Origin: Phycisphaerales bacterium
GTDB lineage: Bacteria > Planctomycetota > Phycisphaerae > Phycisphaerales > UBA5793
Direction of reading: 5' to 3'
DNA: 64,000 nt
Assembly: GCA_020852515.1 (NCBI GenBank)
Contig: JADZAS010000037.1
Location: forward strand, 62,001-126,000
Shown: piece after piece, positions 35,032 through 62,238 of the stretch
How the letters are laid out: the number at the start of each line of letters is the position of its first letter
Numbering within the stretch: the first letter of the stretch is position 1
Notes under the pieces: model-generated
The model's input: only the letters and a program-made list of their open reading frames with translations
The model's database searches: none
Told to the model about the DNA's origin: nothing
Translations under genes and position numbers: made by a program

Positions 35032-35546
35032 AGCGACGTGGCATGACCATCCTCGAATTGCTCCTCGCCCTGGCGCTGTTGGGCGTCTTGTGTTCGCTGC
35101 TGACTTCATGGCTCGTGACGGTGGCCCGGCTTTCGGCGGAGCGAGGCCCGCGGCTCGAATGGCGATCGGCAGCGATGCGCGTTCTCGATGGGATCGGAGA
35201 TGATCTGGCGTGCGGGGATTTCGAAGCGACCGCCCGCAACGCAAAGCTCAGGCCGCGCGTCGAAGCGCAGGAGCCGGCGCGCCTTCGCATTCGCACTCGA
35301 AGCACATCGACGCAGTCTCCGGACAACGCCGGTCCTGGAATCCACGAGTACCGCTTCGACCGCACGGCTCAATCGCTCGCAGTCGCCATCACGTCGACGG
35401 CGCGATCCACATCACCGGTGAACCGGCAATTGCTCAGCGGCGTCGCCGACTGGCAAGTCCAACTGGATGAGGAGGATCGCGTCCTGAGCGTGACCATCGT
35501 CTCGCGCCACGGCGACACATTGAGCAGGAGATTCACATGGCCCTGA
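35028..35546 (+). CDS. gspJ: Minor pseudopilin GspJ-like
   Basis: A 172-aa pseudopilin beginning KRRGMTILELLLALALLGVL, with Gly at -1 and Glu at +5. The C-terminal domain is longer than in GspI (RVLDGIGDDLACGDFEATAR, GIHEYRFDRTAQSLAVAI), as expected for GspJ. ATG 35028 overlaps the gspI stop; the upstream in-frame ATG at 34971 lies inside gspI. With I and K it should form the tip of the pseudopilus. Confidence 0.82.
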   Translation: MKRRGMTILELLLALALLGVLCSLLTSWLVTVARLSAERGPRLEWRSAAMRVLDGIGDDLACGDFEATARNAKLRPRVEAQEPARLRIRTRSTSTQSPDNAGPGIHEYRFDRTAQSLAVAITSTARSTSPVNRQLLSGVADWQVQLDEEDRVLSVTIVSRHGDTLSRRFTWP

Positions 35547-37885: not shown

Positions 37886-38409
37886 AGGCGGTGCGGCCTG
37901 GCATCATCAATGCGCTCGGCGTGACGGCGGCCGCGCTCTTCATCGCTCTGGCCTTTCGCCAGATCCGCCTTGCACGCGACCGCTACGACGCTGCGCTCGC
38001 CTCAGTCGAGGCGCTCCAGCGCGACGCCGCCGAAATCATCGACCTGCGCGCTCGGCGTAAGGTCGTGGCCTGGAAGCAGCGGCCGACGACGGATATGCTC
38101 GCCGAAATCAACGCGGCCCTGGTCGAAGCCGGCATCCCTTCATCGCGCCTGCGCGGCATCGGCGAAGGCGCTGACACCCCTCTTGCCGGCCCGGGCGAGC
38201 AGAACCTCCCTTTACGCCGCCAATCGCTCACCGTGAATCTCGAATCGCTGGCCCCGGCGGAAATCGGGAGCTTTCTGCACCACTGGCTGCTCCTGCAGCA
38301 TCAGTGGAGCGCTGATCGACTCGAACTCATCCATCGGCGCGGCGACGCACAGAACGACACGTACGACCTGCGCCTGCACATCACCGCCGTTTACTATGCA
38401 GGAAGTTGA
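37882..38409 (+). CDS. gspM: GspM-like inner-membrane protein
   Basis: A 175-aa protein from a GTG overlapping gspL. One N-terminal helix (GIINALGVTAAALFIALAF), a short coiled coil (DRYDAALASVEALQRDAAEI) and a periplasmic domain with LRRQSLTVNLESLAPAEIGS, the ferredoxin-like fold expected for GspM. Assigned by architecture and position after gspL. Confidence 0.7.
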   Translation: MKAVRPGIINALGVTAAALFIALAFRQIRLARDRYDAALASVEALQRDAAEIIDLRARRKVVAWKQRPTTDMLAEINAALVEAGIPSSRLRGIGEGADTPLAGPGEQNLPLRRQSLTVNLESLAPAEIGSFLHHWLLLQHQWSADRLELIHRRGDAQNDTYDLRLHITAVYYAGS

Positions 38410-46534: not shown

Positions 46535-47349
46535 AAGGCCGCACAGCTGCGTGGCTACTGCCTGCGCCCGCTTCGAACCGCCCCTGAATGTAGCTTCCGC
46601 GTACACCCAACCTGGCAACCCGGACTTCGCGCGCAGGTATTTCCGTGTTCGCCTCGGGGTCCGATCCGAACCCTGCTGTTAAATAACTCGGTTGTCAACC
46701 AGAGAGGGTGAGAGTTTGAGAGGGTTGGGGTCGATTGACGATCCGAACCCCCGGGGTTTGGATCGGGGTGCCGATCGGGCGTTTCGGAAAAGAGAGCGCG
46801 GGCTTCGCGGCGCCAGCGGCGCAAGTCTTTGGAATCACGCCACTTTGCGCGACCTGTGCGGCAGGTGGCCGCTGAGCCCGATCTGTCAACAAGAACGCCG
46901 CCGAAAACTCGCGGCGGCGTCGTGAACTCCCCGATCCGAACGGTTTCGAACCGTTGGCTAATCGGGAACCGGGCATGATAGCGCTCGCGCGGCGTTAACC
47001 AAGCGGGTCGAGCCGCATTGGCGCGGCAAAAAACGCGGGTGGCGGAGAGTCACCGGAAGTGGCCGCGCCGCTCGGAAGGCGGCGACCGCCGTTCGCCAGC
47101 CGCCTCCTCTGCGGGGATCAGCGGCTGCGCCTCGCGCTCGCGCGCTGCAAACCGGACACCACGTCCGAACTCGGCGCGGGCGGGTTAACCGCGCGCGAGC
47201 GTTGTGGAGAGCCTGGAGACCCATGGCGGCCGGCGTTGGAGCGGCATAGGGCTCCCTTCGATAGAAACCCAAACGGATGCCGTCTTCCGGCTATACTCCA
47301 CAGGAAGTGTTCGACGATACACTGTGTTGCAGATGATGTTGGAGGCACG
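46535..47349. other. Noncoding region with repeats, left border of the accessory island
   Basis: About 815 bases without a convincing gene. Three copies of CGATCCGAAC lie at 46662-46671, 46739-46748 and 46932-46941. The middle copy begins a near-perfect dyad, GATCCGAACCCC (46740-46751) and GGGGTTTGGATC (46753-46764), with one G-T pair. TATACT near 47291 may be the -10 box of the methylase gene, which has the ribosome site GGAGG before its ATG. Confidence 0.55.
46895..46955 (-). other. T-arm-like hairpin followed by a leftward terminator (possible tRNA remnant)
   Basis: On the minus strand, AACGG-TTCGAAA-CCGTT (46939-46955) has T-arm geometry and is followed, after about 18 bases, by a 9-bp stem hairpin (46895-46903 with 46912-46920) and TCTTGTTG. 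The layout copies that at 39095-39162. No complete tRNA can be folded, so it is either a 3' remnant of a tRNA gene or a chance hairpin. Confidence 0.35.
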
Positions 47350-49341
47350 ATGGCGAAGCGAAACCACCTGAACGGCGACTCCGCCCTGCTAATTCCCGAA
47401 CTGAAGACCCCCAAGGAAGCGTTCCGGGATCTGCGGAACTATCTCGCGGGGCAGCATGTTGGCGCCACGCGCGATGACTCGCTGTTGGAAGAACTGCTCA
47501 AATGTCTGTTCTGCAAGCTCTATGCGGAGATGGGGCGGACGGGCGAACTGCTGGCGGACCTCGAACCGTTCACGCTCGCGAAGCAAGTTCGCGGGATCTT
47601 CGCCAAGGTTCGGAAGGACTTCCCCGACCTGTATACTAAGGACACTGAGATCCTGCTGGCGCCTGATGCCATTGCTGAAGTGATGCGACAGTGCGCGTTC
47701 TCGTTGGTCGACGCGTCGACTGATCCGATCGGCGATGCTTTCGAGGTGTTCGTCGGTAGCGAATCGAGGGGTCGCGCCGGCCAGTTCTTCACTCCACGGC
47801 CCGTGACTGACCTGCTGGTGGAAGCGGTAGATCCCAAGCCAGGCGAAACCATCATCGATCCCGCATGCGGCGCCGGCGGGTTTCTCACTTCAGCGGCGCG
47901 CCATTTTCTCGACAAGGGCGTGAAGCCGAGCGAGCTGGGAGCCTTGGTCTCCAACCACTTGTACGGCATCGATAAGGACGAGTACCTCACGAAGTTGGCG
48001 AGGCTCCATGTCGCTCTGCTAACCACGGGACACCCGAGGATTCATTGCGCGGACAGCGTCTCGCTGCAGAATGGAAGCGCACATTTTCGGAGCGAACTTC
48101 CCGCTGAGGGATTCGATGTGCTGCTGACGAATCCGCCATTCGGAGTCCGCATCGTTGCCGCCCGACCTGACGTCCTTCGGACCTTCAGTTTGGCTCGCAA
48201 ATGGCGACGTGATCCGGAGACGAACCGGTGGGTACCGACGGGCGAGCTTCAGTCGCAGGTACCGCCGCAGGTGCTATTCTTGGAACGAAGCCTGTCACTG
48301 CTCAAGGAAGGCGGCCGGCTCGGCATGGTGTTGCCTGAGAGCATCCTGTCAAACAAGTCCTATCGCCATGTCATGGAGTTTCTGTCGGATGCCGCAGAGG
48401 TCGAAGCGGTGATTGGCATGCCGGACGCTCTGTTCAAGACGTCTGGCAAGGGGGGTACCCATACAAAAACGTGCTTGCTCGTCGCCACCAAGCGGACGGA
48501 GCGGGTGAAGCGGAAGCCTTCGATCTTCATGGCTGAGGCGAAGTGGTGTGGGCACGACTCGCGCGCCCGCGTCATTCCACATAATGATCTGCCGAAAATC
48601 GCGGCCAACCTGAAGGCGTACCGGGCGAAGAGGAATCTTCCTGCATCCACGCTCGGCTTCCTGGTTGACAGGGAGAACATCGTGGACAATGTGCTGTGTC
48701 CGCGGTACTACGACCCACAGATCGTCATCGAACTGGCTTCCTTAGAACGCACGCACGATCTAGTGCGATTTGGCGATCTCGTCAAACGCGGGGTACTGTC
48801 CATTGCCACCGGCGACGAACTTGGCAAACTCGCTTATGGCACGGGCGACATTCCGTTTATCCGCACATCGGATATCAGCAATTGGGAGATCAAGGCCGAT
48901 CCCAAGCACGGAGTGGATCGGAGGACGTTTGAGCGGATTAGGAGCAAACAGGATGTCCGGGCCTATGACCTACTTATGGTGAAGGATGGCACCTACCTGG
49001 TCGGCACCTGCGCCATCGTGACGCCGAATGATCGAGAGTTGATCTACCAGAGCCATATTTACAAGATCCGGGTGAACGATAATGAAGGCCTCGTCGACCC
49101 CTTTTTGTTGCTGGCCATCCTGAGCTCCCCCGTCGTTCAGCGCCAGATCCGTTCAAAGCAGTTCACCCAGGACATCATCGACAGTCTCGGTGACCGGATT
49201 CACGAGCTGGTTCTGCCGATACCCAAAGACGCGAAGACGCGGGAAAGCGTGACCGAGATGGTCAAGACCGCGTCACGAAAGCGTGTTGAAGCACGGGAAC
49301 TTGCCCGCGATGCTCGACTCGCGGTGGCCGGCGCCGGGTAA
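47350..49341 (+). CDS. N6-adenine DNA methyltransferase fused to a type I specificity domain
   Basis: A 663-aa protein from ATG 47350 (GGAGG upstream). Residues 1-110 are an HsdM-like helical N-terminus. The methylase core has motif I DPACGAGGF (about residue 170) and the catalytic motif NPPFG (about 260), i.e. the gamma-class N6-adenine type of HsdM. From about residue 465 there is a single target-recognition domain of the HsdS kind (LVRFGDLVKRGVLSIATGDE, IPFIRTSDISNWEIKAD, DLLMVKDGTYLVGTC, LLLAILSSPVVQRQI) ending in a helical spacer. Such M-S fusions act alone or as part of larger anti-phage systems, marking self DNA. No HsdR is present; the convergent HNH gene or the helicase operon are possible effectors. 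Confidence 0.88.
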   Translation: MAKRNHLNGDSALLIPELKTPKEAFRDLRNYLAGQHVGATRDDSLLEELLKCLFCKLYAEMGRTGELLADLEPFTLAKQVRGIFAKVRKDFPDLYTKDTEILLAPDAIAEVMRQCAFSLVDASTDPIGDAFEVFVGSESRGRAGQFFTPRPVTDLLVEAVDPKPGETIIDPACGAGGFLTSAARHFLDKGVKPSELGALVSNHLYGIDKDEYLTKLARLHVALLTTGHPRIHCADSVSLQNGSAHFRSELPAEGFDVLLTNPPFGVRIVAARPDVLRTFSLARKWRRDPETNRWVPTGELQSQVPPQVLFLERSLSLLKEGGRLGMVLPESILSNKSYRHVMEFLSDAAEVEAVIGMPDALFKTSGKGGTHTKTCLLVATKRTERVKRKPSIFMAEAKWCGHDSRARVIPHNDLPKIAANLKAYRAKRNLPASTLGFLVDRENIVDNVLCPRYYDPQIVIELASLERTHDLVRFGDLVKRGVLSIATGDELGKLAYGTGDIPFIRTSDISNWEIKADPKHGVDRRTFERIRSKQDVRAYDLLMVKDGTYLVGTCAIVTPNDRELIYQSHIYKIRVNDNEGLVDPFLLLAILSSPVVQRQIRSKQFTQDIIDSLGDRIHELVLPIPKDAKTRESVTEMVKTASRKRVEARELARDARLAVAGAG

Positions 49342-50421
49342 TCAGGCCCAGCCTCGTGCCTCGTAGTTGGTCGCAACCCGCCGGAGTAAATTGCGAACCT
49401 CGGCGAGCCCCAGGCTGCCTTGGATGCGATTCCCATCCGCTGACACCCAGCTAATGTTTTCCGGTGAGTGGCCAGACGCGGTCGCATTCGGATCGTCGAG
49501 CTTAAGGGGGTTCAGATGACCGACCTGAAAGTCGGACTTGCCATGAGACGGGTTCATAAGCTTGTCGTGGAACTCTGCAAACGACATGGGGTCGAGCGTG
49601 ATCGGACACCGGAACGGAGCGAGGTCCGGTGCCAGCACACCCTGAGCTTGTAGCATTTCGCGAGACCGTTGCGGGAACCCGTCAAACATGCACAACTGCT
49701 GGACCAACGTGTATTCTATGGCCATACACGTCTTTCTGGCAGCAAAGTGGACAGAACGAGGATGAACCTCCCACCTCTTTTCCCGATTCGTCTTGTGGTC
49801 ACCAGTCAACACACGATCCGTCAGGTAGGTCTTGACCTTGATCTTGTCCTCCAGTACCTTGCGGAAGAACGGAGCGTCCGGACTGGTCGCCGGGTCCGTC
49901 AGGTACTTCCTGAGCTTCATCGTGCGCAGCATCGTTGAGGTTGACACCCACTTCAGGTTGCCCCGGCGGTGAATGCGAGTACCGTCCGTTGGACGATCCT
50001 GATAGTCGAGCGGTACCTCGTAAGGCAGCAGTGAACGGTCAATGCAGAGCCGCATGAGCTCGCCGTTCTCGGGCAAATCGAGCCAGCCAGCCCCGAGATC
50101 CGCCAGCAGATCACGCGCGATGGTGACGCACTCCTCGAACGTGCATTGACGCGGATCACCAGTGAGCTGTTCGTACCAACGAGAACGGAACTTGGTGGTC
50201 TCAATCGCAGGGACCTTTACCAACTCGATCAGGAACACGTGGCGCAGGATCGCGCTGGCCAGCTTCGGATAGTGTCCCTGAAGCTTCTGCTTCAAGGGCG
50301 GCATAAGCGCTGCGATCTCGGGGTGTGCCTCGACGAGAGGCCACACCTTGCGGACCAGCGCGGGCATGCTGAATCTGTCCGCCTCCAGGATGGTTTCAAT
50401 CTCGTGCTGAATCACGGGCAT
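49342..50421 (-). CDS. HNH endonuclease-like protein
   Basis: A 359-aa protein (from ATG 50421; longer starts up to 50694 are possible). Most of the N-terminal part is helical and unrecognised (LVRKVWPLVEAHPEIAALMP, FEECVTIARDLLADLG). The C-terminal 80 residues form an HNH-type nuclease domain: FRCPITLDPMSFAEFHDKL, then DFQVGHLNPLKLDD, then SPENISWVSADGNRIQG, giving H, N and N-type residues. It is convergent with the methylase and ends one base after it, so the pair may be a restriction-modification-like unit. The site specificity would come from the methylase partner or from its own N-terminal part. No strong ribosome site decides the start. Confidence 0.72.
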   Translation of the reverse strand: MPVIQHEIETILEADRFSMPALVRKVWPLVEAHPEIAALMPPLKQKLQGHYPKLASAILRHVFLIELVKVPAIETTKFRSRWYEQLTGDPRQCTFEECVTIARDLLADLGAGWLDLPENGELMRLCIDRSLLPYEVPLDYQDRPTDGTRIHRRGNLKWVSTSTMLRTMKLRKYLTDPATSPDAPFFRKVLEDKIKVKTYLTDRVLTGDHKTNREKRWEVHPRSVHFAARKTCMAIEYTLVQQLCMFDGFPQRSREMLQAQGVLAPDLAPFRCPITLDPMSFAEFHDKLMNPSHGKSDFQVGHLNPLKLDDPNATASGHSPENISWVSADGNRIQGSLGLAEVRNLLRRVATNYEARGWA

Positions 50422-50931
50422 CCATCCCGGCGTGCGCGGTGAAAGCGATCGACAGTGACGGTCGGCAGCAGCGGGTGTCGTGACATCGCCTGAAGCATAT
50501 GTCATCCGAGCATGGCCGGTGGGTCGCCATATCGATGGGAGCCTGCCCGTGGCGTGCCATGACCGCCAGACGTCGCACGAACCGTTGTGAAATCGCCCGC
50601 AGCGGGTGAGACGACGGGTATGACCTCGCAGCGAGCGGAGACAAGGCCGCACATCGGCCCCTTCGCCAAGTCCTTGCAGAACAGTGGCCTGCAAACGCCA
50701 GCGCAGCCGAGGTCTCTAGGCTGCGTCTCCAGCAAACCACAGGGCCGGCTGCGTTTGCAACCGGCCCTTCAATAGAGGGTGGGATAGCCCGGATCGAACG
50801 GGGCTCCGTCGCTCACGCCCGAATTCGCCATGATTGGACGGCCGAGCGGGTCTCTCCAAGGCATCGCCGGCAAGTGTATGTGGCGATTTGGGCGTCATTT
50901 GACGGGGCACGTTGGAATTTCAGGCTCTGCG
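50422..50931. other. Noncoding spacer with a strong hairpin between the HNH gene and the helicase operon
   Basis: About 510 bases with no convincing gene. AGGGCCGG (50741-50748) pairs with CCGGCCCT (50761-50768), and three further inner pairs extend the stem. It may terminate leftward transcription from the helicase operon or the element next to it. Just to its right, AGCCC-GGATCGAACG-GGGCT (50786-50805) looks like an imperfect T-arm. The hairpin next to a T-arm-like sequence repeats the layout seen at 39.1 and 46.9 kb. Confidence 0.45.
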
Positions 50932-53900
50932 TTATCGCGCGCGGGACAGCGCCGCTCCGTGTCCGCCCGCGCCAGTCAGACCCCGCAACCAAGCCAGGGG
51001 CACGGACCGCTGCAGGTGGTCCCAATGGAACTGATTGGAGTAGTTGCGTAGACATCCATAGCAGCTTCCATTGGGATCGCACTGCGGATTCTCGCATCGT
51101 TCGAGCTGGCGCATGGCCTTGGTGATCACCTCGGACAATCGCTCCTGAATGCGCTCTGCGTACCCGGCTCCGCCCGGTATTCGATCGTAGAGGTACAACT
51201 CTCCTTCATTGCCGGACTCCGAACTCGCCCGGAAACCGCATACCAGGTCATTTCTGGAAATCTCCAGGAGGTCGCACGCCGCGTTGGCAATAGCCGCCGC
51301 GAGCGTGTGCCAGAAGGCCAGGTCCCCTACTTCAGAAATACTCCCGCCACTGAACTGCACCTGGAGCACCGATGTCGAGAAGTCGTGCGCCAGGGCCAAT
51401 GGACGGAACATGCCGGTGCATCTTCCACCCCAGGGAGACTCATGAGGACCCCGCCCGCCGACAGTCCGCTGCGCCCCACAGCGCAGACAGACATGGAAGC
51501 CTCGCTTCTGCTTTCCGAGGTTGGCACGGAACAAGCGAGACTCTGCTCCCAGAGCGGACCGCACACCTCGCAGGCCAGCGCATGGCACAAATGCGCTTTC
51601 GTCAGCCCCCTCGGCTAGGAAGACTTCCGTACTTGGTGGCGGCCGTCGCCGGAATAGATTTGGCGGCGCCGGCCTCTCGGAGGCGCTCGTCGTGAATCCC
51701 AGCGGCTGTATGAAGTGGAAAGCCTGAGGGCCCGCCGTGGCCTGCCCTTCTTGCGCGAGCGCAATCGAGATGCGATGACCGGGAAGAAACCTAACAGTCT
51801 CGAGCCGCGGCTCACGCCTTTCGAGATCAATTCCCACGCTCGTCAGCGAGAATCCATCTGCGATCACCTCCGCACCGGGCGCATACTCAGAAATGCCCTG
51901 ATCCCGCGACCGCTCCAATCGCATCTTGCTCCGGAAGTCACCGGCCCGTACGGTCAGTTGCACAACATCCTGTGGAAACGCATAGTTCGGCAGCCAATGC
52001 TCGCCAGCGAGAAAGTCGATCACGCTCCTATCGCACACGTCTGAGGCCAGTCGTTCCACGCGTTCCGAGGCGGACGCGAGAGCCGTCGCTCGCTTGCGAT
52101 CACCCTCCTTCCATGCCTTGTCGGCTTCTTCCCGGAGTTCATTCAGCTGAAGCTCGTAGGCACGCAGATGGGCTCGAAGCCCCTTATGCCACGCGGTGCG
52201 ATCCGCCGCATTCGAATCGCGAGCGAACAGGCTGTCGCTTGCTTGCGCGATCGCATCAGTCGCAGTGAGCCCCGGGATGTTGGGCATGAACGCCCCGACC
52301 TCGGCAGTGAGCTCGTGGGCGTGATCATGGCACCACGGAGAGAAGAGGTCCGCCGGACGAGCGGGACCATCGACGGTCTTTGGGAAGAAGCCCAGATGTT
52401 TGTCGGTGTCACCCGCTCGAATCTGCCCCAGCGACCGTGGCTGTTTGTCGAACTTCTGCATTTCTCCAGATTCCAGCAACCACAGCAGAAACCGTCCAAG
52501 AAGCAGGCTGTTCACGTGCCGCTGGGTCAACACGCGATTCTGCGTATGGACGGTCGGCACCGGTACCCGACCGGCGACCATATCCAGTGGCCGAAAGAAG
52601 TGGTGGAGATCGTGCGGCACAGACCGAGCAAATGTCACCGCATGCGCCAGTGACTGGTTCCGCCTTCCGGCTCGCCCGGCGCGCTGCAGATAGTTCGACG
52701 TCGATGGCGGCACGTTGCGAAGCAGCACTGAGTCCAGGTCGCCAATGTCCACACCCATTTCAAAGGTCGTCGAACAGCTCAGCACATTGGACGCACCAGT
52801 CTTGAACTCGTCTTGGTATTCTCGACCATGCTCCAGGCTGAGTTGCGCCGTATGTTCGCGCACACGCAAGGGCAGCGGTTCGGCCTTGTACCGGCGGATG
52901 AGATGACGAGTGGGCGCTCCTTCCTGCGCTGTGGCGACCTCCACAAGTCGACCCTTGCACTCAAAGACCTCGCATTGCCCACCCATGGCGTGCACGGTGC
53001 GAGCATCGCAAGAGTGACAGCGGTACCACGGTCCCCTGCCGCTTGCCAGAATCGCGTCGGCGGGAACCTGAAATAGGCCGGTGCCGAGCCCATGTAGTAT
53101 CGCGCCTCCCTCGGCTGTCAGCACGTCCCACAACGCTTCGAACGTCTCGTCCATCAACGCTTCGGACACCGGTCCATACAGGTTCAACGCCTTCTCAAGC
53201 ACATCTCGCAGGTGGCTCCGCTTTATGGATGTCCCTCGATGACGGGAGGGGGCCCGGTAGGGGTTCCATCGCAAGGGCCGCATGCCATCGCGGCTCAATC
53301 CCGCGGGATCTTTGTGAACCGCGACCTGTAGAGGTCCTTTGCGTCCCGGCAGCAGGTCGCGTGCCTGAATCTCGCTCGGCGAGAAGGTAATCGCGTACCG
53401 GCGCATCAGAAACGCGCACACGCGCTGGATCGCATCGCTGCCGGCGCATTCATCGCCGAACAGTGCTGGCACGCCGCTTCGCAGGGCGTCAAGATCGGCC
53501 GACCGAAGCTCCATGTGCGGCGCGGCGAGCATGAGGCGAGGCAAGCGCGTCCGCTGAAGTGGCGTCGACGTCAAGTGCTGATACAGGACGAGGGCGCACT
53601 CACGCATGAGTTTGCGCTCATCTGCGCCACGTAGCGTTGCGGATTCTGCCACCTCGTAGCAGTCGTAGCCATCGTCATCGGTCGTGCGCAAGATCACCCA
53701 GCGTCTCGCCTTGGCGTGTCTGGCCGCAGCCTCCGCCAACTCCGGAATGCTGCGGACCTCGCCCTTGGCGTCCGCGTGGGAGATCGCCGTCAGCACTGGC
53801 TCCACGAATGACGCCTCCGCAACGGTTCGACTCAGATAAGGGGCGAAGAAGGCTGCGCGCTGGCGGCTATCCGAGAACGCCAGCAAGCGCCGACCACCAG

Positions 53901-55818
53901 CGGGCTTCGACCCATTCTGGACCGGCATCTGCCTCAGCAACTCTTCTGCGAGTACAGCCGTCGGAGCGTCATCGCCGGTAATGAATGATCGAGCAGCCGA
54001 GGGGAATGCGCCCCGCCCCGCCCCGCAGCAGGGGCACTTCTGAATGTCACCCTGCTCATTGGCACTCGGGACCACGTACATCTGAACGAGCGTGTCGGCC
54101 GGTGAGGTTGGGCGGCTACGAAGCAGACCCCGCGACTCGGTATCCAGCCACAGAGAAGGGACATCATCGCCGACCTCTTCCGAGGCCTCCGCCTGGTCAT
54201 CGGGTTCCCGCTCGACCATGAACTCTGGGCTCACCCAGGTCAGCGCGAGGCGGTTCTCACCATCGTTCATCGTTGGGTACGCCCAGCGATCTCCATCCTC
54301 ACGGACCACCACGAACGGGAACCCGCAGGAATGACACACCGAGAGTGGTACGGGATGTCGCCCCCTTTCATCGGCAGTGCGCCGGTCTTCGAGCACGAGT
54401 TGTTCGAGCACTCCATCTGGTCCGCCGGTCCCTTGTTCGCCCGATAGGTAGACAGACGCGCCCGCTACGCCACGGAAGAACTGGTGCACCCGTGCCGATA
54501 GCAGCGGCACGCCGTCCACTTCCGTCGTGCGGGCGTTCGTGGCCAGAACGACCAGCCGTTCCAGGCACTGAGGGGATACGACCAGCCCCTCACCCGACAG
54601 TGCGCCATGCAATTCTGAGATCGATCTCGGACTCGCGATGATCAGCTCACGCGCCCGTCGAACGACCGTGAGGGGATTCAGAGTACGAAAGAGCGTTGAC
54701 CGCGGTCCTTCGCCGACTTGGACCTGAAACCCGCACTGTTTGAGCATTCCTCGCATCGCAGCGGTGGCGCTCAGCGCCGTGGCGATAGCGTCATCAGCCG
54801 CCACAGATTCGAGATTCGTGTGGACCGACGCTGGAAGAGCCACGGAGGATGCCACTTCGAAATCGTCCTGCCTCACGCCACGAATGACATCGCCAGCGTC
54901 GAATTCAGATCCCGTCAGCCGGGTCGCAAACTCAGCGATCCTCTGGGAGGCGTCTGGACTGTCATCTCCTAGGGTGGCGCTGGTGAGAATGAACTTGAGG
55001 GAACTGCCAAACCGTCGCTTCAGCTTGCGCATCAGCAGGCTAATATCGATGCCCTGAGCTCCTGTGTAGCTGTGAGCCTCATCCAGGACCACGTGTCGCA
55101 CTTTGCCGTGACGAAAAATTCTCTGGTCGTCCGGACGCAGCAACAGGTACTCAAGCATCGCAAAGTTGGTCAGGAGCAGTTGAGGAGGTTCGCTCCGAAT
55201 GTCCTCGCGGGACCGTCTCTCGCTCGGGCACACCGGTGGCCCGTCTCTGGCTTCTACCTCGTCTGGAGTCTGGCTCGTGTAGCGGCCAAACGTCACGCCC
55301 GAGTCCGCGATGAGGCTCTGCATCCGATCCAGCTGATCATTCGCGAGTGCGTTCATCGGGTACACAAGAATCGCCCGTACTCCGGAGGGTTCGCCCGATC
55401 GGATTGCCTCGTCAAGTAGCGGTAGAAGGAAGCACTCGGTCTTTCCGCTACCGGTTCCCGTGGCAACAACGACGTTGCGTCCGCTCTGCATGGCTTTGAT
55501 TGCGGCCAACTGGTGCCTGTATAGAGGCCTGTCCGCGTGAAAGACCTGCGGGTTGAGCCGTGCCATGCGGCTGGAGAGTCTGGGCGCGTCTGACCGATCG
55601 AAGAGCTGACGCGGCGTTTCCGCCGTTCGATAGCTCGGAATGGCCGAAATCAGCGGCTCTCGGACAAACGCGTCCGGCACCGCGAGCTGCTCGCGAAATT
55701 GCGCACGCAGGCGCCCTTGAGTGTGATGGATCGGCAGCGCCTCAACCATGTAGTCAAGGTACTGATCCCTCATGGCGCCGGCCACGCGGAACGGATTTAC
55801 GACGCTCACAGTTGACAT
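50932..55818 (-). CDS. Large DEAH-box helicase with zinc elements and C-terminal DUF1998-like domain
   Basis: A 1628-aa superfamily-2 helicase. Walker A is ATGTGSGKTE (about residue 120), the DEAH box lies in VVLDEAHSYTGAQGID (about 245), motif III is TSATLG (about 281). A long insert (about 300-1000) carries CxxC pairs (VCHSCGFPF, KCPCCGAG). The C-terminal motor half has FEMGVDIGDLDSVLLRNV and QRAGRAGRR (about 1025-1060). The end has the DUF1998 signature LYDRIPGGAGYAE (about 1546) and a cysteine cluster CENPQC-CYGCLRNYSNQFH. This architecture is like DruE of Druantia, the DrmA/DrmB pair of DISARM and DpdJ. It is the last gene of a tightly packed operon with an Hsp70-type ATPase. Probably ATP-driven recognition or unwinding of invading DNA. 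Confidence 0.9.
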   Translation of the reverse strand: MSTVSVVNPFRVAGAMRDQYLDYMVEALPIHHTQGRLRAQFREQLAVPDAFVREPLISAIPSYRTAETPRQLFDRSDAPRLSSRMARLNPQVFHADRPLYRHQLAAIKAMQSGRNVVVATGTGSGKTECFLLPLLDEAIRSGEPSGVRAILVYPMNALANDQLDRMQSLIADSGVTFGRYTSQTPDEVEARDGPPVCPSERRSREDIRSEPPQLLLTNFAMLEYLLLRPDDQRIFRHGKVRHVVLDEAHSYTGAQGIDISLLMRKLKRRFGSSLKFILTSATLGDDSPDASQRIAEFATRLTGSEFDAGDVIRGVRQDDFEVASSVALPASVHTNLESVAADDAIATALSATAAMRGMLKQCGFQVQVGEGPRSTLFRTLNPLTVVRRARELIIASPRSISELHGALSGEGLVVSPQCLERLVVLATNARTTEVDGVPLLSARVHQFFRGVAGASVYLSGEQGTGGPDGVLEQLVLEDRRTADERGRHPVPLSVCHSCGFPFVVVREDGDRWAYPTMNDGENRLALTWVSPEFMVEREPDDQAEASEEVGDDVPSLWLDTESRGLLRSRPTSPADTLVQMYVVPSANEQGDIQKCPCCGAGRGAFPSAARSFITGDDAPTAVLAEELLRQMPVQNGSKPAGGRRLLAFSDSRQRAAFFAPYLSRTVAEASFVEPVLTAISHADAKGEVRSIPELAEAAARHAKARRWVILRTTDDDGYDCYEVAESATLRGADERKLMRECALVLYQHLTSTPLQRTRLPRLMLAAPHMELRSADLDALRSGVPALFGDECAGSDAIQRVCAFLMRRYAITFSPSEIQARDLLPGRKGPLQVAVHKDPAGLSRDGMRPLRWNPYRAPSRHRGTSIKRSHLRDVLEKALNLYGPVSEALMDETFEALWDVLTAEGGAILHGLGTGLFQVPADAILASGRGPWYRCHSCDARTVHAMGGQCEVFECKGRLVEVATAQEGAPTRHLIRRYKAEPLPLRVREHTAQLSLEHGREYQDEFKTGASNVLSCSTTFEMGVDIGDLDSVLLRNVPPSTSNYLQRAGRAGRRNQSLAHAVTFARSVPHDLHHFFRPLDMVAGRVPVPTVHTQNRVLTQRHVNSLLLGRFLLWLLESGEMQKFDKQPRSLGQIRAGDTDKHLGFFPKTVDGPARPADLFSPWCHDHAHELTAEVGAFMPNIPGLTATDAIAQASDSLFARDSNAADRTAWHKGLRAHLRAYELQLNELREEADKAWKEGDRKRATALASASERVERLASDVCDRSVIDFLAGEHWLPNYAFPQDVVQLTVRAGDFRSKMRLERSRDQGISEYAPGAEVIADGFSLTSVGIDLERREPRLETVRFLPGHRISIALAQEGQATAGPQAFHFIQPLGFTTSASERPAPPNLFRRRPPPSTEVFLAEGADESAFVPCAGLRGVRSALGAESRLFRANLGKQKRGFHVCLRCGAQRTVGGRGPHESPWGGRCTGMFRPLALAHDFSTSVLQVQFSGGSISEVGDLAFWHTLAAAIANAACDLLEISRNDLVCGFRASSESGNEGELYLYDRIPGGAGYAERIQERLSEVITKAMRQLERCENPQCDPNGSCYGCLRNYSNQFHWDHLQRSVPLAWLRGLTGAGGHGAALSRAR

Positions 55819-55822: not shown

Positions 55823-56167
55823 CTACGCTCCGCTGCCGCATCGGCACTCGCTGCCGAACAACCACTTCCAGTTGACGCTTCCGTCGGCCACCCTCACCGG
55901 ACCGAATACCACCCGCTGGCACGTCCGGCACCGCAGGGTTTCGTGACGCTGCGCGTATTGCTCGGGACGAAGCACAGTCAGAATGTGCTGCTCCTCGACC
56001 GCCGTCGGCGGTGACATGGACCTTCCGAGGATGTCGGTGACCAGACGTCGTATCGCAGGTCCGCCTCGGACGTGACGGACAAACTCCGTGTCGCCAACCC
56101 GCCCAAGGTGAGCGTTCCGCGGCACAACATTGGACACCGGCATGACATTGGATCGGGGTGTGGTCAT
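55823..56167 (-). CDS. Small zinc-ribbon protein of the helicase operon
   Basis: A 114-aa protein. The N-terminal 75 residues are unrecognised. The C-terminus has a zinc-ribbon pattern: LRCRTCQRVVFGPVRVA, then FGSECRCGSG, i.e. CxxC and CxC. It starts six bases after the Hsp70-type gene and ends four bases before the helicase gene. Possibly an adaptor that binds DNA or links the ATPase to the helicase. Confidence 0.72.
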   Translation of the reverse strand: MTTPRSNVMPVSNVVPRNAHLGRVGDTEFVRHVRGGPAIRRLVTDILGRSMSPPTAVEEQHILTVLRPEQYAQRHETLRCRTCQRVVFGPVRVADGSVNWKWLFGSECRCGSGA

Positions 56168-56173: not shown

Positions 56174-57601
56174 TCAGGCTCCAATGTCGTATGTGAAGCG
56201 CAGTTTCTCGTACTCGAACTCCCGGACATCCGCTTCATTGCCTGATTGGCTTTGCGCCCGCGCATGAAAGGTGAGGTCCCGCGTGAGCATGGTCGAGAGG
56301 TCCAGCCTTTCACGGTCGAATCCTTGCATGGGGACAGAGACGTATCCGATGTTCTCAGTGTCGGTCGCACCGTGCGTTGAGCTCTCAAGATCCCGGCTTC
56401 GGCAGAACACGAGCTCCGCACTACGTGCGTCCTCAACTATGCCGAGTACGTGATGTTCGGGCAGCCCACCAAAGGGATCTCCTGGATCGACGAGCGGGAG
56501 CGCCGAATTGTCGGCGAGCCGCAGTTCCAGCCGATCCAGCACCTTGAACCGCCCGGGGTTGTTGGCCAGAGCGGATGCGCCTTGTGCGACCGCCCACTCC
56601 GGTTCGCGTCCGTGGAACACCCTGCCGGGAAACAGATCCTCGAGCCGATCACGAACAGACACCAGTTGACTGCTGCCACCGACAAGCACGATCTGGTCAA
56701 TCACCCGCGTTCCAACGTTCGCCGAGGTCAGCGCCCGCCGCAGCACCTCAACTGCCGATTCCACTATGGGGTGCACAAGTTCTGCAAGCAGCGGACGCTC
56801 GATCCGTACTGACGGCGCGCCCTCGCCAAGATACCCCGGCACGGTGATCGTGGACTCGATCTCGCGAGACAGCGTCTGCTTGGCCGCTTCACAGCGGAAT
56901 CGCAGCCGGTCCTTGTCACGCGGGCTGACATGCTTGAATGCTGGTGCGTCCGTCATCTCCAGGGTCAACTGCCTGTGAGCCCATTCCGCGATGTGGTTGT
57001 CAATGGCATCGCCAGCGATAGCCATGCCATCAACCGCGAGTTCCCGTATCTGTCCTCCCCCAACGGAGAGCACGCTCACGTCGAGAGTGCCGCCGCCCCA
57101 ATCGAAGACGGCAAGCGTCGAACAGTTCCCCAAATCCTTGCGGTACCTCAAGAATGCGGCGGTGGGCTCCGAGACAAAGTCCGTGATAACCACGCCCGCA
57201 CCGAGTGCCGCGTCCCGGAGAGTCTGCCGTTTGGCGCGCCGAAAGCCCACCGGGATTGCAATGACCGCCTCTCTCATCTCGCGTCCGGTCTGGCGTTGGA
57301 CATGGTTGACTAGATGCCGGAAGAACTCCTCAGCAATGTCGAAAGGTGTCCAGGAGCGGTTGGGGGTGTTCCACCGATGGTCGGTGCCGAGCTGCGTCTT
57401 GACTGACAACACCACCTCGTAGTTGGCGTCGCGGAGCTCTTCTTGCCTCTGTTTGACGACATCCCCGCACACGACCTCGCCGGAGGCTCGGTTGATGGCG
57501 ATAGCCGTAGGGATCGGTCCGTTCGACGGACCGCGCAGCAGCGTGGTTTCGTCGAAGACGACCGCGGAGTTCGTGGTGCCGAAGTCGATGCCAAATGCCA
57601 T
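56174..57601 (-). CDS. Hsp70-type (DnaK-like) ATPase with shortened C-terminus
   Basis: A 475-aa protein with a complete Hsp70 nucleotide-binding domain: phosphate-1 loop GIDFGTTNSAVVF at the N-terminus, VIAIPVGFRRAKRQ, TDFVSEPTAAFLRY, phosphate-2 loop AVFDWGGGTLDVSVL (around 170) and adenosine loop IVLVGGSSQLVSVRDRL (around 325). After about residue 355 only some 120 residues remain (about 240 in DnaK), with beta-like content (DRLELRLADNSALPLVDPG), so the usual substrate-binding lid is missing. It lies between the coiled-coil and Zn-ribbon genes, 3-6 bases from each. It probably assembles or regulates the helicase complex rather than folding general clients. Confidence 0.88.
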   Translation of the reverse strand: MAFGIDFGTTNSAVVFDETTLLRGPSNGPIPTAIAINRASGEVVCGDVVKQRQEELRDANYEVVLSVKTQLGTDHRWNTPNRSWTPFDIAEEFFRHLVNHVQRQTGREMREAVIAIPVGFRRAKRQTLRDAALGAGVVITDFVSEPTAAFLRYRKDLGNCSTLAVFDWGGGTLDVSVLSVGGGQIRELAVDGMAIAGDAIDNHIAEWAHRQLTLEMTDAPAFKHVSPRDKDRLRFRCEAAKQTLSREIESTITVPGYLGEGAPSVRIERPLLAELVHPIVESAVEVLRRALTSANVGTRVIDQIVLVGGSSQLVSVRDRLEDLFPGRVFHGREPEWAVAQGASALANNPGRFKVLDRLELRLADNSALPLVDPGDPFGGLPEHHVLGIVEDARSAELVFCRSRDLESSTHGATDTENIGYVSVPMQGFDRERLDLSTMLTRDLTFHARAQSQSGNEADVREFEYEKLRFTYDIGA

Positions 57602-57604: not shown

Positions 57605-59032
57605 CTATCCATTCGAGCGAGGGGTCGGAGGACGGAGCACCCGCATGAGCTCCTCGTGACACGACCTCAGGGCGGCCCGCTGCCTTTCCGATGGCTCCAA
57701 TTGCAGAAGTTCCTTCATGTTCTCGATGTGAATACTCGCTGCCCTAGTCAGTTCCTGCGCCATCGCGGCCCGTTCGGTGTCACGCGTGTATTCAACATCC
57801 TTTCGCTTGTCCTCACGGACCCGCTCCAGATCCCGTTCGAGTTGCGCATTCCGACTTTTCACTTCCGACGTGGTCGCCTCCAGGCCGGCGGTGAGCTCTT
57901 TCAGTTTGCACAGTTCTGACTCAGCTGCTTCTGTTGAACGAAGCGCGCGATTACGCTGGTCGGTTATCTCGGCGAGCGCACGCTCCTGTTGCTCGAAGCG
58001 TTCCTTCGTGATCCCGAGCGACGTTGCGAGTTCATCCCTCTCCTGCGTCCGCCGCTTCAGACTGTCAGCGAGATCCGTCGCTCTGCGACGCAGGTTCAAG
58101 AGTTCCGAGCCGTCTTCGCTGCTCCACCGCTTCACCTCCGCCTGTATGACCCGCAGCGCGTCGGCGATGAGCACCTTTGGATGCGACGGTGGACTGCCCG
58201 GACTGCCCTGCGCAAGGTTCGATCTCGACTCGGCCTTGGTGTTCGCCACTCCGCTTGGAAGCACGCGGGGCACGGTTGTGGCGTTCGGAGCCACGCCCTT
58301 TTCGAGGCCGGCGCTCGAGGCTACGGACGCAGGCACCGCTTCCGCGGCTGGTCCGAGAGATCGCAGGCGACTGAGTGCTGATTCCACTGCATGGCGACTC
58401 TCGCTGGACGACTCAGTGACAAGCTGAGCATCCAGCCAGTTGGTCACGGCGTCGCGGAGCGCCGGCGGCTGACCGCTCAGCGCTTCGTTCAGAAGCGAGT
58501 CAAACTCCGGCCGCGCGTCCCTGGCTATATGGGTATAGCGGAGCGCAAACAGGGGGGCCGTGCTGACCGGCTGCAGCCATCGTTCAAGTAAAGTTCTCCG
58601 GAGCGTTGCACGTAGGTCTGTGCGGGGCGCAGTGCCTCCACCTCTGCCAGGCCGCGCTCCGCCGCCGGCCCTCCTGGCGATCACTCTCATGGCCTCACCG
58701 AGCAACCCGCTGGCACCCACAGGGTCTGATGTAGCGACCGCCGCGCCCAGGTACAAGCAGGCCCGCGCTCGGCTCTCCGGCTTGCGTTCGTGCCACTTCC
58801 ATCTCAGCGCGACGACCTGAAGATCCTTCGGCAGGTCCGCCCAGCGCGCCGCGAGCAGTTCCGCGGCACGTTCTGCGTGCTCGTTCTTGTGTTTCAAGGC
58901 GGTTTCAAAGTCCCTTGCGTCACCAGATCCCAACTCTCCGCGCGCAAGGATCGCTTGGAGCGGAGACTTCGAATCTGATGAGCCAGACTTTTCTGACGGG
59001 GGGCCGTCTGTATGTGTTTCGCTCATTCCCAT
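57605..59032 (-). CDS. Coiled-coil protein of the helicase operon
   Basis: A 475-aa protein. Residues 1-200 are a helical, HEAT- or TPR-like region (FETALKHKNEHAERAAELLA, ACLYLGAAVATSDPVGASGL), 200-280 a Ser/Pro-rich linker, and 280-450 a long coiled coil (ADSLKRRTQERDELATSLGI, LEATTSEVKSRNAQLERDLE). Polar C-terminus. No enzyme motif. In this operon it may be the structural or scaffold partner of the Hsp70-type ATPase. ATG at 59032 or 59026; both overlap the end of the preceding 1071-aa gene. Confidence 0.78.
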   Translation of the reverse strand: MGMSETHTDGPPSEKSGSSDSKSPLQAILARGELGSGDARDFETALKHKNEHAERAAELLAARWADLPKDLQVVALRWKWHERKPESRARACLYLGAAVATSDPVGASGLLGEAMRVIARRAGGGARPGRGGGTAPRTDLRATLRRTLLERWLQPVSTAPLFALRYTHIARDARPEFDSLLNEALSGQPPALRDAVTNWLDAQLVTESSSESRHAVESALSRLRSLGPAAEAVPASVASSAGLEKGVAPNATTVPRVLPSGVANTKAESRSNLAQGSPGSPPSHPKVLIADALRVIQAEVKRWSSEDGSELLNLRRRATDLADSLKRRTQERDELATSLGITKERFEQQERALAEITDQRNRALRSTEAAESELCKLKELTAGLEATTSEVKSRNAQLERDLERVREDKRKDVEYTRDTERAAMAQELTRAASIHIENMKELLQLEPSERQRAALRSCHEELMRVLRPPTPRSNG

Positions 59033-62000
59033 TTGACCAGCTTCCCGAGCTCGAGCTCACTGACGATCTTGTCACGGTCCTGCATGGTGCCCGGTATCTC
59101 GTGCATTCTGGCTCGCGCACGCAAAAGCATATTGGACGCCTCACCATTCGTCCCGAGTGCGATCGCTCGCCAGAGCAACCACAACGTGAGCCACGATCCG
59201 GCGTGCATTCCGACGTTTGGGTCACACCGTGCCAGCGCGGCGAGGGCAGTGTCATCGTCGAGTGGGCTGACGTCAGCTAGGGCCCAGGAACACTCAATGA
59301 CCGGGCTGGCAACCGCGCCGCCTCGCAGGTTGGCCAGCACGTAGGATAGACAAGGCGGAATAGCGCTGTGCGGATCTAGGCGGGATGTCTCATTCAGAAA
59401 AGGCGTGATGTTCCCGCTGCGGAGCATCGTCAACAAGTAGAACGCTCTAGCCACCTCGCACCAGAGGTCCGTGGCCGCCATCCAAGCTGCTCTGAGCTGG
59501 TGCAGCGCGGATTGGACTGCGACCTGCCGCACATCGAGTCCTCCCGTGGAAAACGCGATCCGATAGTTTCTGAGTCCGTTCAGCAGCCCATCCGGGACGT
59601 CCGACGGTGGCGGCGTTCGTTCCAGTACGGCTCTTCGAAGTTGTCGCATCGTCGACGTTGAGTCGGCGGCGGTCATCAACCGCTGCTCGGCCTCGGACAG
59701 CAAGACGCGCCACGTCGTAGGCCACACCTCGTGCCGCACGCCGGTTAGCGCGAGCACCGCTTCGGCGTCGAGTCGCCGCCATTCGTCAACGAGTGCGGAG
59801 GCGTCGGAGGGTCGGAGACGCTCCCGAGAGCGCCGGACGAGCGTGGCCAGTTGTCGAGCGTTACCATCAAGATGCCGTTCAATGCCATACACAATGCGAG
59901 CCCCTCTCAACCAGGGGTCGATGATGTTCTGCAGGGAGTCTAAGGGTGCAGCGAGTCCTGAATCGGAAGGCTGGTGTCCGGCCTGGAGACCTCGGAGTCC
60001 GTTCAGCGCGGCGACCAGCTCGGGCGGAGTGCCTGTGGGCGCTTCGAGGGTTGGACGGGGCCGCCAAAGCGCCGCGGTATTTACGAGCACGACTTCGAGA
60101 GGCAACTGTCGACCGTATTGGGTCAGCTCGAACAGGCCTACCTCAGCCTGAGCCCCTCGGACGGCATCACGTATCTGTGCCCAGCGAAGCGGATACCTCC
60201 CGATCTCAGACTTCTCGGCCGCAAAGTCAGAAACCTCGAAAAGCGGGTATGTTCCGTTCGCGGTGCGAAGCGTGAGCTTCCAGCCCTTGCGGCGCGCCGC
60301 AACGATCGTGAAATCGCCGAGCCGCCCACTGGATGAAGCCCTATCCCGCGTATCGATGGCCGACATATCCAGGAGCACCGGGGTTCCCGGCTCGCCCGGC
60401 ACGACCATGCGAGCCCGCGGCAGGCACGACGTCACCCGCAGTTCGTCATGACCGATCCTCAGAACTAAGGATGCCTCATCTGAAGGTGGCGCAACTTCAA
60501 TTACGCGAGGCAACGACTGCCCCCTTTGGTCAAGAACATCGAGCACCGCAGACGTCCTGATGGTGACGGTGCCGATATCGTTGGCGCCCATGACGTTCGG
60601 TGACTTTAGAAGCTGGACGTCGGGCCACACGGCGTACACAAGCGTGCTCTCGGACTTGAGGGAGCCCGAACGCCGTCCTCTCCCCTCGATCCGCACGACT
60701 CCGACGTGCGGCCGCTGTGGTAACAGGAGACGGTGTGAACCCGCACTGGGATGTAGCTGCTGGGTTACGTCATCGACGTGTCCCTCCACCTCCCGCGTAA
60801 CGCGAAAGTGTGCGAAGCGCTCGGCCGTCCAGCCCGCCACACGGATGTGCGCGGCATCGGGCGAGAGGACTACGTCGACGTCTGGAGTGCAGCCGTCCAG
60901 TGGGTGTGCGCTCTCGACCTCAAACCGTGGAACTGACGCAGCCGATACCACCGAGACACCCGGCAGGGCGTCGCATCCTTCAACCAATGCGACGTGTAGC
61001 AGCGCAAAGTCTCCAACGTCAGCCCCATCAAACTCAAGTAGGCCCAGATCAGCTCGAATCTCAAGCCCTGTTGCCCGCAACGCCGTTGCCGCCAGGCAAT
61101 CGCTGACCGCAATGAGGTATTCACCCGCCGGCAGCGATGTCGTCTGGCCATGCGAGCCCGCAATTGCACCTCTCAGGTCGAACACTGCCCACGCGCTGTT
61201 GCGTCTCGGCCAGGCTTGGATCGACCACTCGCCCTCGGTTTCCCGTTGCTCAACCGTGCCCGTGAACATGCTCTCGTAGCGCACCGACTTCCCGAGGTAC
61301 ATGACTGACTTGATGCTCCCCGCGTGGCTACTGCTCTGGTTCCAGGTGTACTTGCAAGTTCTGCTTGCTGCGAGGCCCGGGAATCTGACCGCCATCCGCC
61401 CCTGCTCTTCGAGGACGATGAGAACTGGCCAGAGCCCTCTCGGAATACCGTGCTTGGGCTTGCGACCCTCCCCATCGAGCAACGGGTTCAGTTCCTGGAC
61501 GAGTCTGTGCAGAAAGCCGGTATGGAACCCGGGCTCCTGCGCCAGGCGACCGGCAACGTCTCGCCGAGCCGGCCAACCAGAACGAGCCAGCACGGCACCG
61601 GCTGCGCGAACGAGCTCCTCGCCCGCCTCAGAAGACAGAAATTCAGAGGCGAAACGAGTGCCTTGGAATGCGGTGTTCACCGCTCGCTGAAGCGTCTCAC
61701 TGGGAAGGCTGGCCACGGCCTCCAGCCCATGATCACACGCGATGTCGAAGACCAATCTGGCAAACCGCGGAATCAAGAGCCTTGGCACGCCCGTGTGAAC
61801 TCTGACAGGTCCGACGTACCGCCACCGGAACTCCGGCGCGAATCCCGCCCATTGTTCGATCGCTCCACGCACCGCAGGCCCAACGTGTTCGGCCCACTCA
61901 CGTTTACATGCGTCCTCGTCAGCAATGCCGAGCTGTCGCATGAACGGGACCACAAGGCCTCCAGAGTCTTCGTGTTCAAAGCACACCTCGACTGCAGCGC

Positions 62001-62238
62001 GGGCCAACGCCAGCTGCGCGTCTCGCCCGATCCCCCATCCACGTTGGCGACGAAGAGTCTTCAAGAGCGAGGCGAGATCCACTCCGTCCGGAAGCGGCAC
62101 CTCACAGAGATACTCCACCTGACCCTGCTGGGCGCGCAGTGCGTGGGCGACCGCGCCAATGGGGTCAACGCCGTTGGCTTGATGAGTGTCGGCGCTAGAC
62201 AAAGAGCGCCTCCGCGATGACGAAGCAGCCACATCCAT
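59023..62238 (-). CDS. 1071-aa protein of unknown fold, core of the helicase operon
   Basis: No signal peptide, membrane helix or recognisable catalytic motif. The N-terminal third (about 1-300) is helical with GPVRVHTGVPRLLIPRFARL and looks like a conserved recognition domain. Residues 300-700 are beta-rich, with several repeated Ig-like or jelly-roll-like modules (GEYLIAVSDCLAATALRATG, RVAGWTAERFAHFRVTREVE, GTVTIRTSAVLDVLDQRG). The C-terminal third is helical (LRRAVLERTPPPSDVPDGLL). It might be a distant relative of the large unnamed proteins that accompany DUF1998 helicases in predicted defence arrays, but I cannot place it. It overlaps both neighbours, so its product must be made in step with theirs. 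Confidence 0.8.
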   Translation of the reverse strand: MDVAASSSRRRSLSSADTHQANGVDPIGAVAHALRAQQGQVEYLCEVPLPDGVDLASLLKTLRRQRGWGIGRDAQLALARAAVEVCFEHEDSGGLVVPFMRQLGIADEDACKREWAEHVGPAVRGAIEQWAGFAPEFRWRYVGPVRVHTGVPRLLIPRFARLVFDIACDHGLEAVASLPSETLQRAVNTAFQGTRFASEFLSSEAGEELVRAAGAVLARSGWPARRDVAGRLAQEPGFHTGFLHRLVQELNPLLDGEGRKPKHGIPRGLWPVLIVLEEQGRMAVRFPGLAASRTCKYTWNQSSSHAGSIKSVMYLGKSVRYESMFTGTVEQRETEGEWSIQAWPRRNSAWAVFDLRGAIAGSHGQTTSLPAGEYLIAVSDCLAATALRATGLEIRADLGLLEFDGADVGDFALLHVALVEGCDALPGVSVVSAASVPRFEVESAHPLDGCTPDVDVVLSPDAAHIRVAGWTAERFAHFRVTREVEGHVDDVTQQLHPSAGSHRLLLPQRPHVGVVRIEGRGRRSGSLKSESTLVYAVWPDVQLLKSPNVMGANDIGTVTIRTSAVLDVLDQRGQSLPRVIEVAPPSDEASLVLRIGHDELRVTSCLPRARMVVPGEPGTPVLLDMSAIDTRDRASSSGRLGDFTIVAARRKGWKLTLRTANGTYPLFEVSDFAAEKSEIGRYPLRWAQIRDAVRGAQAEVGLFELTQYGRQLPLEVVLVNTAALWRPRPTLEAPTGTPPELVAALNGLRGLQAGHQPSDSGLAAPLDSLQNIIDPWLRGARIVYGIERHLDGNARQLATLVRRSRERLRPSDASALVDEWRRLDAEAVLALTGVRHEVWPTTWRVLLSEAEQRLMTAADSTSTMRQLRRAVLERTPPPSDVPDGLLNGLRNYRIAFSTGGLDVRQVAVQSALHQLRAAWMAATDLWCEVARAFYLLTMLRSGNITPFLNETSRLDPHSAIPPCLSYVLANLRGGAVASPVIECSWALADVSPLDDDTALAALARCDPNVGMHAGSWLTLWLLWRAIALGTNGEASNMLLRARARMHEIPGTMQDRDKIVSELELGKLVKWE

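What the first reader, a model, noticed from the sequence alone, without database searches (positions are those of the whole stretch)
56174..57601. Hsp70-type ATPase without a normal substrate-binding domain inside a helicase operon
All ATP-binding loops of DnaK are present but the C-terminal part is half the usual length. This suggests a dedicated ATP-driven switch for the helicase complex rather than a general chaperone. No J-domain gene is seen nearby.
Basis: partly seen in the sequence, partly recalled or inferred. Interest (0 to 1): 0.6.

Follow-up and report, generated by a model that had tools for sequence, protein, structure and literature searches.

The report
Portable Hsp70 cassette in phage-defence operon
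A shortened cousin of the DnaK chaperone sits in a five-gene operon that looks like a phage-defence system, and the same small set of genes recurs beside several unrelated bacterial DNA-defence systems, which suggests an ATP-driven part that such systems can borrow.

Summary
In detail: 56174-57601(-) is a 475-aa Hsp70 with the tested ATPase residues intact and no C-terminal lid. One detail is wrong: the beta half of the substrate-binding domain (SBDbeta) is present (AlphaFold2 pLDDT 93.0; top PDB match DnaK lacking SBDalpha). The operon is Druantia III-like: DruH-like protein (hhalign 95%), coiled-coil protein (CC), Hsp70, small Zn protein, DruE-like helicase without the usual C-terminal nuclease. 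The same five-gene order recurs in a Desulfomonile MAG (L109). CC-Hsp70-Zn behaves as a portable cassette: of 47 family loci, 13 lie beside DISARM-like DrmA, 3 DruE, 6 BREX genes, 3 McrB(C), 3 DUF1156-DUF499, 7 only an SNV-Zn/UvrD gene, 12 undetermined; a fourth DruE locus (L161) came later. The Zn domain is a free gene, or fused to a UvrD helicase, or probably the tail of the Hsp70. The Hsp70 lies far from DnaK/HscA (100/99). The J-domain contact arginine and the VLLL linker are absent in 46 of 46, so it probably works without DnaJ. Switch, sensor and assembly-chaperone roles are not separated. Ten literature searches showed no description of this cassette.

The parts
59023..62238 (-). Big, 1071 aa, DruH-like (YjiT-type N-terminus) putative sensor
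   Evidence: hhalign of window+L109 Big against four DruH candidates: 95.2%, E 2.5e-8, columns 25-164; blastp to the L109 counterpart E 1e-8, residues 77-371; no PADLOC DruH hit at E up to 1
57605..59032 (-). CC, 475 aa: helical-repeat domain (24-224), disordered linker (231-284), one helix 308-443, short helix 449-466
   Evidence: AlphaFold2 mean pLDDT 78.9, pTM 0.46; a same-strand gene directly upstream of Hsp70 in 47 of 47 family loci, 44 of 47 passing a home-made coiled-coil composition rule
56174..57601 (-). Lidless Hsp70, 475 aa: NBD 1-351, SBDbeta 352-472
55823..56167 (-). SNV-Zn protein, 114 aa (SNV motif, CxxC and CxC)
   Evidence: hit at E 7.1e-6 by a profile trained only on 16 proteins' N-terminal domains from genes downstream of family Hsp70s, mostly UvrD-like helicases, and E 6.1e-8 after adding L109 and L106; 9 reversed decoys none
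50932..55818 (-). DruE-like YprA-family helicase, 1628 aa, Walker A, DEAH and MZB present, ends soon after MZB, no PLD or Vsr nuclease part
   Evidence: Pfam DEAD, Helicase_C, MZB; PADLOC DruE1 609 bits; alignment A1; sister of the L109 helicase at support 1.000

Best explanation
The Hsp70 is the ATPase of a portable three-part cassette: a helical-repeat/coiled-coil protein (CC), a lidless Hsp70, and an SNV-Zn domain. Here the cassette is built into a Druantia III-like operon with a DruH-like protein and a DruE-like helicase that lacks the usual nuclease. Proposed mechanism: ATP-bound Hsp70 keeps its SBDbeta docked on the CC scaffold. A peptide, from DruH, DruE or an invading phage protein, enters the open groove and triggers hydrolysis along the conserved P143-K70 path, without a J-protein. 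The change of shape passes through the SNV-Zn domain to the helicase and licenses or resets its action on foreign DNA. Shown by calls: gene content, homologies, fold, intact ATPase site, separate phylogeny, recurrence beside several defence systems. Inferred: physical contacts, trigger, direction of control, and the anti-phage role itself.
For: Same five-gene order in L109 with sister helicases. CC-Hsp70 pair in 47 of 47 family loci, mostly overlapping or a few bases apart. 28 of 47 loci lie beside known defence genes (types). SNV-Zn domain free here, fused to UvrD-like helicases in DISARM-like loci, probably fused to the Hsp70 tail in BREX-type members (63%, E 7e-5): fusion to both sides suggests an adaptor. 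K70, T199, E171 and P143 positions 46 of 46. R167 and VLLL linker absent 46 of 46 at R167, L390, L391; no HPD nearby. Own clade (100/99). The P143-K70 path and R167-J-domain contact are described in PMC8215388 (passages).
Against: No experiment and no complex model. 12 of 47 loci show no recognised partner. DruH homology covers only the N-terminal ~140 residues and PADLOC has no hit. SNV link to the Hsp70 tail is weak.
Confidence: 0.45

Rival explanations
1. Dedicated assembly chaperone: the Hsp70 with CC folds or assembles the very large DruH-like and DruE-like proteins (or BREX, DISARM and McrBC subunits) and plays no part in the attack.
For: Partners are large multi-domain proteins; SBDbeta is present; gene order lets it be made with its clients.
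Against: Most DruE and DrmA loci manage without it: none of 19 genomes with strong DruE-like hits other than the window showed the family next to the helicase in the stretches I read (16 stretches of 15 genomes, blastp).
Confidence: 0.2
2. Infection sensor: the SBDbeta groove binds exposed segments of phage proteins, and Hsp70 itself is the trigger.
For: Open, lidless groove. Druantia III work (PMC13192584 and PMC13316683, passages) reports activation linked to phage structural proteins through DruH, so protein sensing fits.
Against: DruH-like Big is already present here; no sign of groove diversification was tested.
Confidence: 0.2
3. Nucleic-acid-binding Hsp70 like the CoCoNuT CnuD, used to target the complex to RNA or DNA rather than as an ATPase.
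For: CnuD is an Hsp70-like part of defence operons with coiled coils and HEAT-like repeats, and is predicted to bind RNA (PMC11090510, passages).
Against: CnuD has degenerate Walker A-like motifs by that paper; here the ATPase residues are invariant in 46 of 46. CnuD sequences were not compared directly.
Confidence: 0.1
4. Chance neighbour: an ordinary dnaK paralogue in a defence island.
For: Defence islands collect unrelated genes; the family is rare here: the signature pattern hits 5 of 392 phylum genomes and the four others are a lid-bearing Hsp70 type.
Against: Gaps of a few bases, same order in L109, separate clade, DruE pairing on several helicase branches.
Confidence: 0.03

Closest known systems
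Druantia type III (DruH-DruE)
   Same: DruH-like first gene, DruE-like helicase last, same strand
   Different: three extra genes (CC, Hsp70, SNV-Zn) between them; helicase lacks the C-terminal PLD part; DruH homology only N-terminal
DISARM-like DrmA-DrmB loci (L092, L105, L107 and others)
   Same: CC, closest kind of Hsp70, SNV-Zn domain before a YprA-family helicase
   Different: SNV-Zn fused to a UvrD-like helicase; DrmA plus DrmB instead of DruE
CoCoNuT CnuD and McrB-fused Hsp70 (PMC11090510, passages read)
   Same: Hsp70-like NBD/SBD with coiled coil and helical repeats in defence operons
   Different: CnuD sits with McrBC-type genes and has degenerate Walker A-like motifs; here ATPase residues are intact and the partner is a YprA helicase; sequences not compared
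HSP70-GrpE in GTPase-centred conflict systems (PMC7159879, passages read)
   Same: Hsp70 with a possible exchange-factor partner in a conflict operon
   Different: GTPase/FNIII context, true GrpE and DnaJ domains there; none recognised here
DnaK / HscA
   Same: NBD fold, catalytic residues, SBDbeta
   Different: no lid, no VLLL linker, R167 replaced, L195 to W in 44 of 46; separate clade

Membership tests
Hsp70 superfamily | NBD with phosphate-1, phosphate-2, adenosine motifs and K70 | tested here: met
Hsp70 superfamily | SBDbeta beta sandwich | tested here: met
   predicted strands 352-472, matches lid-deleted DnaK structures
DnaK-type general chaperone | SBDalpha lid | tested here: not met
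   protein ends 8 residues after the lid-start column; no helices after 346
DnaK-type general chaperone | R167 and VLLLD linker (J-domain coupling) | tested here: not met
   R167 0 of 46, D393 0 of 46, L390 and L391 columns empty in 46 of 46
DnaK-type general chaperone | groups with DnaK or HscA in a tree | tested here: not met
Druantia type III | DruE helicase of the YprA family | tested here: met
   DruE1 609 bits, DruE3 590 bits
Druantia type III | DruH partner gene | tested here: inconclusive
   hhalign 95.2% on ~140 residues but no PADLOC DruH hit
Druantia type III | two C-terminal PLD domains in DruE | tested here: not met
   window DruE ends at 1628, just after MZB; the paper says this branch often lacks a nuclease
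Druantia type III | anti-phage activity | not testable with these tools
   needs an experiment
CoCoNuT with CnuD | McrB/CnuB-like GTPase and McrC/CnuC partner in the operon | tested here: not met
   no such family among the window proteins scanned
GrpE (for CC) | sequence kinship of the C-terminal region | tested here: inconclusive
   hhalign 69.3%, E 4.3e-5 over 103 columns; reversed control 2.9%, shuffles up to 0.2%, end alone 2.8%, coil alone 16.2%
GrpE (for CC) | C-terminal beta wing that enters the nucleotide cleft | tested here: not met
   model all helical to 466

The most novel reading that the evidence does not exclude
CC, a J-protein-independent lidless Hsp70 and the SNV-Zn domain form one portable chaperone-type control cassette that was joined separately to Druantia, DISARM-like, BREX, McrBC and DUF1156-DUF499 systems and drives a common ATP-dependent step (sensing, licensing or resetting) in otherwise unrelated immune machines.
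Probability: 0.5. Interest if true: 0.85.

Novelty: new variant of a known kind. Interest (0 to 1): 0.72.

Why it matters
How large defence helicases are kept off self DNA and switched on is an open question. One Hsp70 cassette shared by several unrelated systems would point to a common control step, would link the sensing of protein states to attack on DNA, and can be tested by removing or moving the same three genes in laboratory strains.

Tried and rejected
Tried without result. (1) Hsp70 as query in 298 class genomes: 289 match, but apart from the window's own gene the hits I looked at are DnaK-type with longer open frames. (2) The 1071-aa protein found nothing in plasmids or viral contigs and only itself in 298 class genomes. 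(3) The single-protein helicase scan of genome contigs found nothing. (4) The DWGGGT[L/F]D DNA pattern hits 5 of 392 phylum genomes; the four others are DLGTTNS, lid-bearing Hsp70s, so that motif alone is not diagnostic. (5) Promoter and terminator scans are not above shuffles. (6) PHROGs and NCBIfam have no family for this Hsp70 beyond general Hsp70 relatives, and none for CC or the Zn protein beyond chance-level coiled-coil hits.

Rejected or left open. GrpE identity of CC: suggestive profile alignment, no beta wing, not claimed. VIA and Foldseek give only common helical-repeat matches for CC (best Z 7.8; no Foldseek E at or below 0.001), so no fold name is claimed. Ordinary dnaK paralogue: rejected by the tree and L109. 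The HNH-like ORF 49342-50694(-) as the missing nuclease: its relative on a small Acinetobacter plasmid is followed by an N-6 DNA methylase and the window copy converges with an N-6 methylase, so I read it as a separate restriction-modification pair.

Rows dropped before counts. From L092-L184 (93 loci) 47 family loci were kept by phosphate-2 motif and match place. L096 (same contig as L084) and L161 were missed by my ORF picker and are outside the 47. L110 (TPR fusion) and L126 (truncated) were left out of the tree, L030 lacked the motif, L161 is not in it. In '7 only SNV-Zn/UvrD' four contigs (L113, L114, L120, L127) end within 1.1 kb of the Hsp70. Of the 9 viral stretches, six belong to the family (L083, L084, L086, L087, L089, L090), L088 is another Hsp70, L091 spurious, L085 unresolved. 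GO-style names such as DrmA, DruE, PglX, McrB for the 47 rest on blast seeds; PADLOC or Pfam checks were made only for L083, L087 (C2H2, CC and Hsp70 only), L089, L106, L109, L156, L157, L158, L167. The McrB and McrC names of L087 are my reading of the sequence and were not checked by a family search.

Full report
Observation. It sits in a compact minus-strand operon: Big 62238-59023, CC 59032-57605, Hsp70 57601-56174, Zn 56167-55823, helicase 55818-50932, with one 10-nt overlap and gaps of 3, 6 and 4 nt. GC of the stretch from about 48 kb on is 58-64%, mostly below the 60-70% to its left.

Structure. AlphaFold2 with 46 family sequences gave mean pLDDT 93.0 and pTM 0.89. Residues 352-472 are beta strands and no lid helices follow. 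The first PDB match is Mycoplasma genitalium DnaK lacking SBDalpha (5OBU); the docked 'stimulating' DnaK 7KRV_B fits with TMq 0.82, rmsd 4.1. VIA aligns model residues 1-464 to a DnaK model at Z 36.8, rmsd 4.8, 443 residues.

Active site. Aligned with the genome's own DnaK, the positions of D8, T11, T12, K70, E171, D194, G196, G198, T199, D201, K270, G341 and G342 are conserved in 46 of 46 rows, and P143 too. L195 is W in 44 of 46. R167, which the review PMC8215388 gives as a contact of the J-domain aspartate (passages read), is R in 0 of 46; D393 is D in 0 of 46; the L390 and L391 columns are empty in 46 of 46. DnaK residue numbers are recalled and agree with that review where it names them. 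This fits the absence of an HPD motif in 7 window proteins.

Operon partners. The helicase matches DruE models (PADLOC DruE1 609 bits) and ends soon after its MZB domain, where DruE proteins such as L066 and L069 continue for several hundred residues. Bell et al. 2025 (PMC12458937; outline, sections 5, 8 and 26 and passages read) say that the Druantia III-like branch most frequently has no nuclease domain. Big aligns with four DruH candidates over about 140 residues (hhalign 95.2%, E 2.5e-8). The Zn protein is found by a profile trained only on N-terminal domains of 16 genes downstream of family Hsp70s, mostly UvrD-like helicases (E 7.1e-6; L109 counterpart 1.2e-22; L106 counterpart 1.5e-11). 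CC is a helical-repeat domain, a disordered linker and one helix of 136 residues.

Recurrence. In L109 (Desulfomonile MAG) the order is 1043 aa, 509 aa, Hsp70 482 aa, Zn 113 aa, DruE-like 1616 aa, the same as in the window; its helicase scores 726 bits against DruE1. L106 (Acidobacteriaceae MAG) has DruF, CC, Hsp70, a 190-aa SNV-Zn protein, a 330-aa protein and a type II DruE (1828 bits). L158 (cyanobacterial MAG) has a C2H2 protein, CC, Hsp70 and a DruE-like helicase. L161 (Gemmataceae MAG) has CC, Hsp70, a 304-aa protein and a DruE-like helicase.

Contexts of the 47 family loci: DISARM-like DrmA, with DrmB in 12 of 13, 13; DruE 3; BREX genes (PglX and/or PglZ) 6; McrB with or without McrC 3; DUF1156-DUF499 3; only an SNV-Zn or UvrD gene 7; other or undetermined 12. 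L083 (contig of L092) scores 782 bits for DrmA and 276 for DrmB; L089 (contig of L093) 1574 for PglX and 1334 for BrxC. As a control, of 45 other loci from the same scans only L161 matched a partner seed, and it proved to be a hidden family member.

Phylogeny. In a 74-row NBD tree the window lies in a 23-row set (100/99) made mostly of Hsp70s next to YprA-family helicases or SNV-Zn/UvrD genes; a second 23-row set holds the BREX and McrBC types; 27 DnaK/HscA-type rows stand apart (100/99). The window pairs with L106 at 84/81 only. In a FastTree of 23 helicases the window and L109 are sisters (1.000), while L161, L106 and L158 fall on other branches. The cassette has therefore met DruE helicases several times, or has often been lost.

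Adaptor. The SNV-Zn domain is a free gene here and in L109, is the N-terminus of UvrD-like helicases in DISARM-like loci, and probably the tail of BREX-type Hsp70s (hhalign 62.9%, E 7.1e-5). Fusion to a helicase on one side and perhaps to Hsp70 on the other is the best hint that it joins the two.

Mechanism. Most likely an ATP-driven, J-independent Hsp70 switch on a CC scaffold, joined through the SNV-Zn domain to the helicase. Assembly-chaperone and infection-sensor roles are not excluded. CC resembles GrpE only weakly (69.3%) and has no beta wing, so an exchange-factor role is a suggestion and not a claim.

Prevalence. The signature pattern occurs in 5 of 392 phylum genomes, and only the window's own hit is of this family. 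Neither of the two same-genus genomes searched has Big. The operon looks like a rare, laterally moved island here.

Literature. Ten full-text searches (one search was for J-domain contacts) showed no paper on such a cassette; nearest are the CoCoNuT paper (PMC11090510, passages) and the GTPase-centred conflict systems (PMC7159879, passages). Druantia III mechanism is from PMC13192584 and PMC13316683 (passages). Most subscription papers are outside that library.

Noticed in passing
window 47059-49341(+) and 49342-50694(-): N-6 DNA methylase (NCBIfam MAD2 237 bits, below its cut-off) converging with an HNH-like 450-aa protein; the pair also occurs on an Acinetobacter plasmid, so probably a separate restriction-modification unit.
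   Followed up: partly
window 19972-27663(-): A 2563-aa open frame in the left half of the window; not annotated by any search here.
   Followed up: no
window 28723-38409(+): Run of genes that read like type II secretion parts (my reading of start sequences, no family search).
   Followed up: no
L110 1830-4175: Family Hsp70 with a TPR-like N-terminal extension in one open frame (781 aa).
   Followed up: no
L006 7586-11192: Rhodococcus plasmid operon with a short Hsp70, a TPR protein whose J-like start lacks HPD, GrpE and FtsK: another Hsp70-based mobile operon.
   Followed up: no
L109 17803-18732: Cas6 gene downstream of the L109 operon, so that copy also lies in a defence island.
   Followed up: yes
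L129, L130, L138, L145, L168: Archaeal MAG loci where an Hsp70 follows a 417-524-aa protein with a GrpE-like region, longer than usual GrpE.
   Followed up: no
L186-L189: Another Hsp70 type with DLGTTNS and DWGGGT(L/F)D and a longer C-terminus in four genomes of the phylum.
   Followed up: partly
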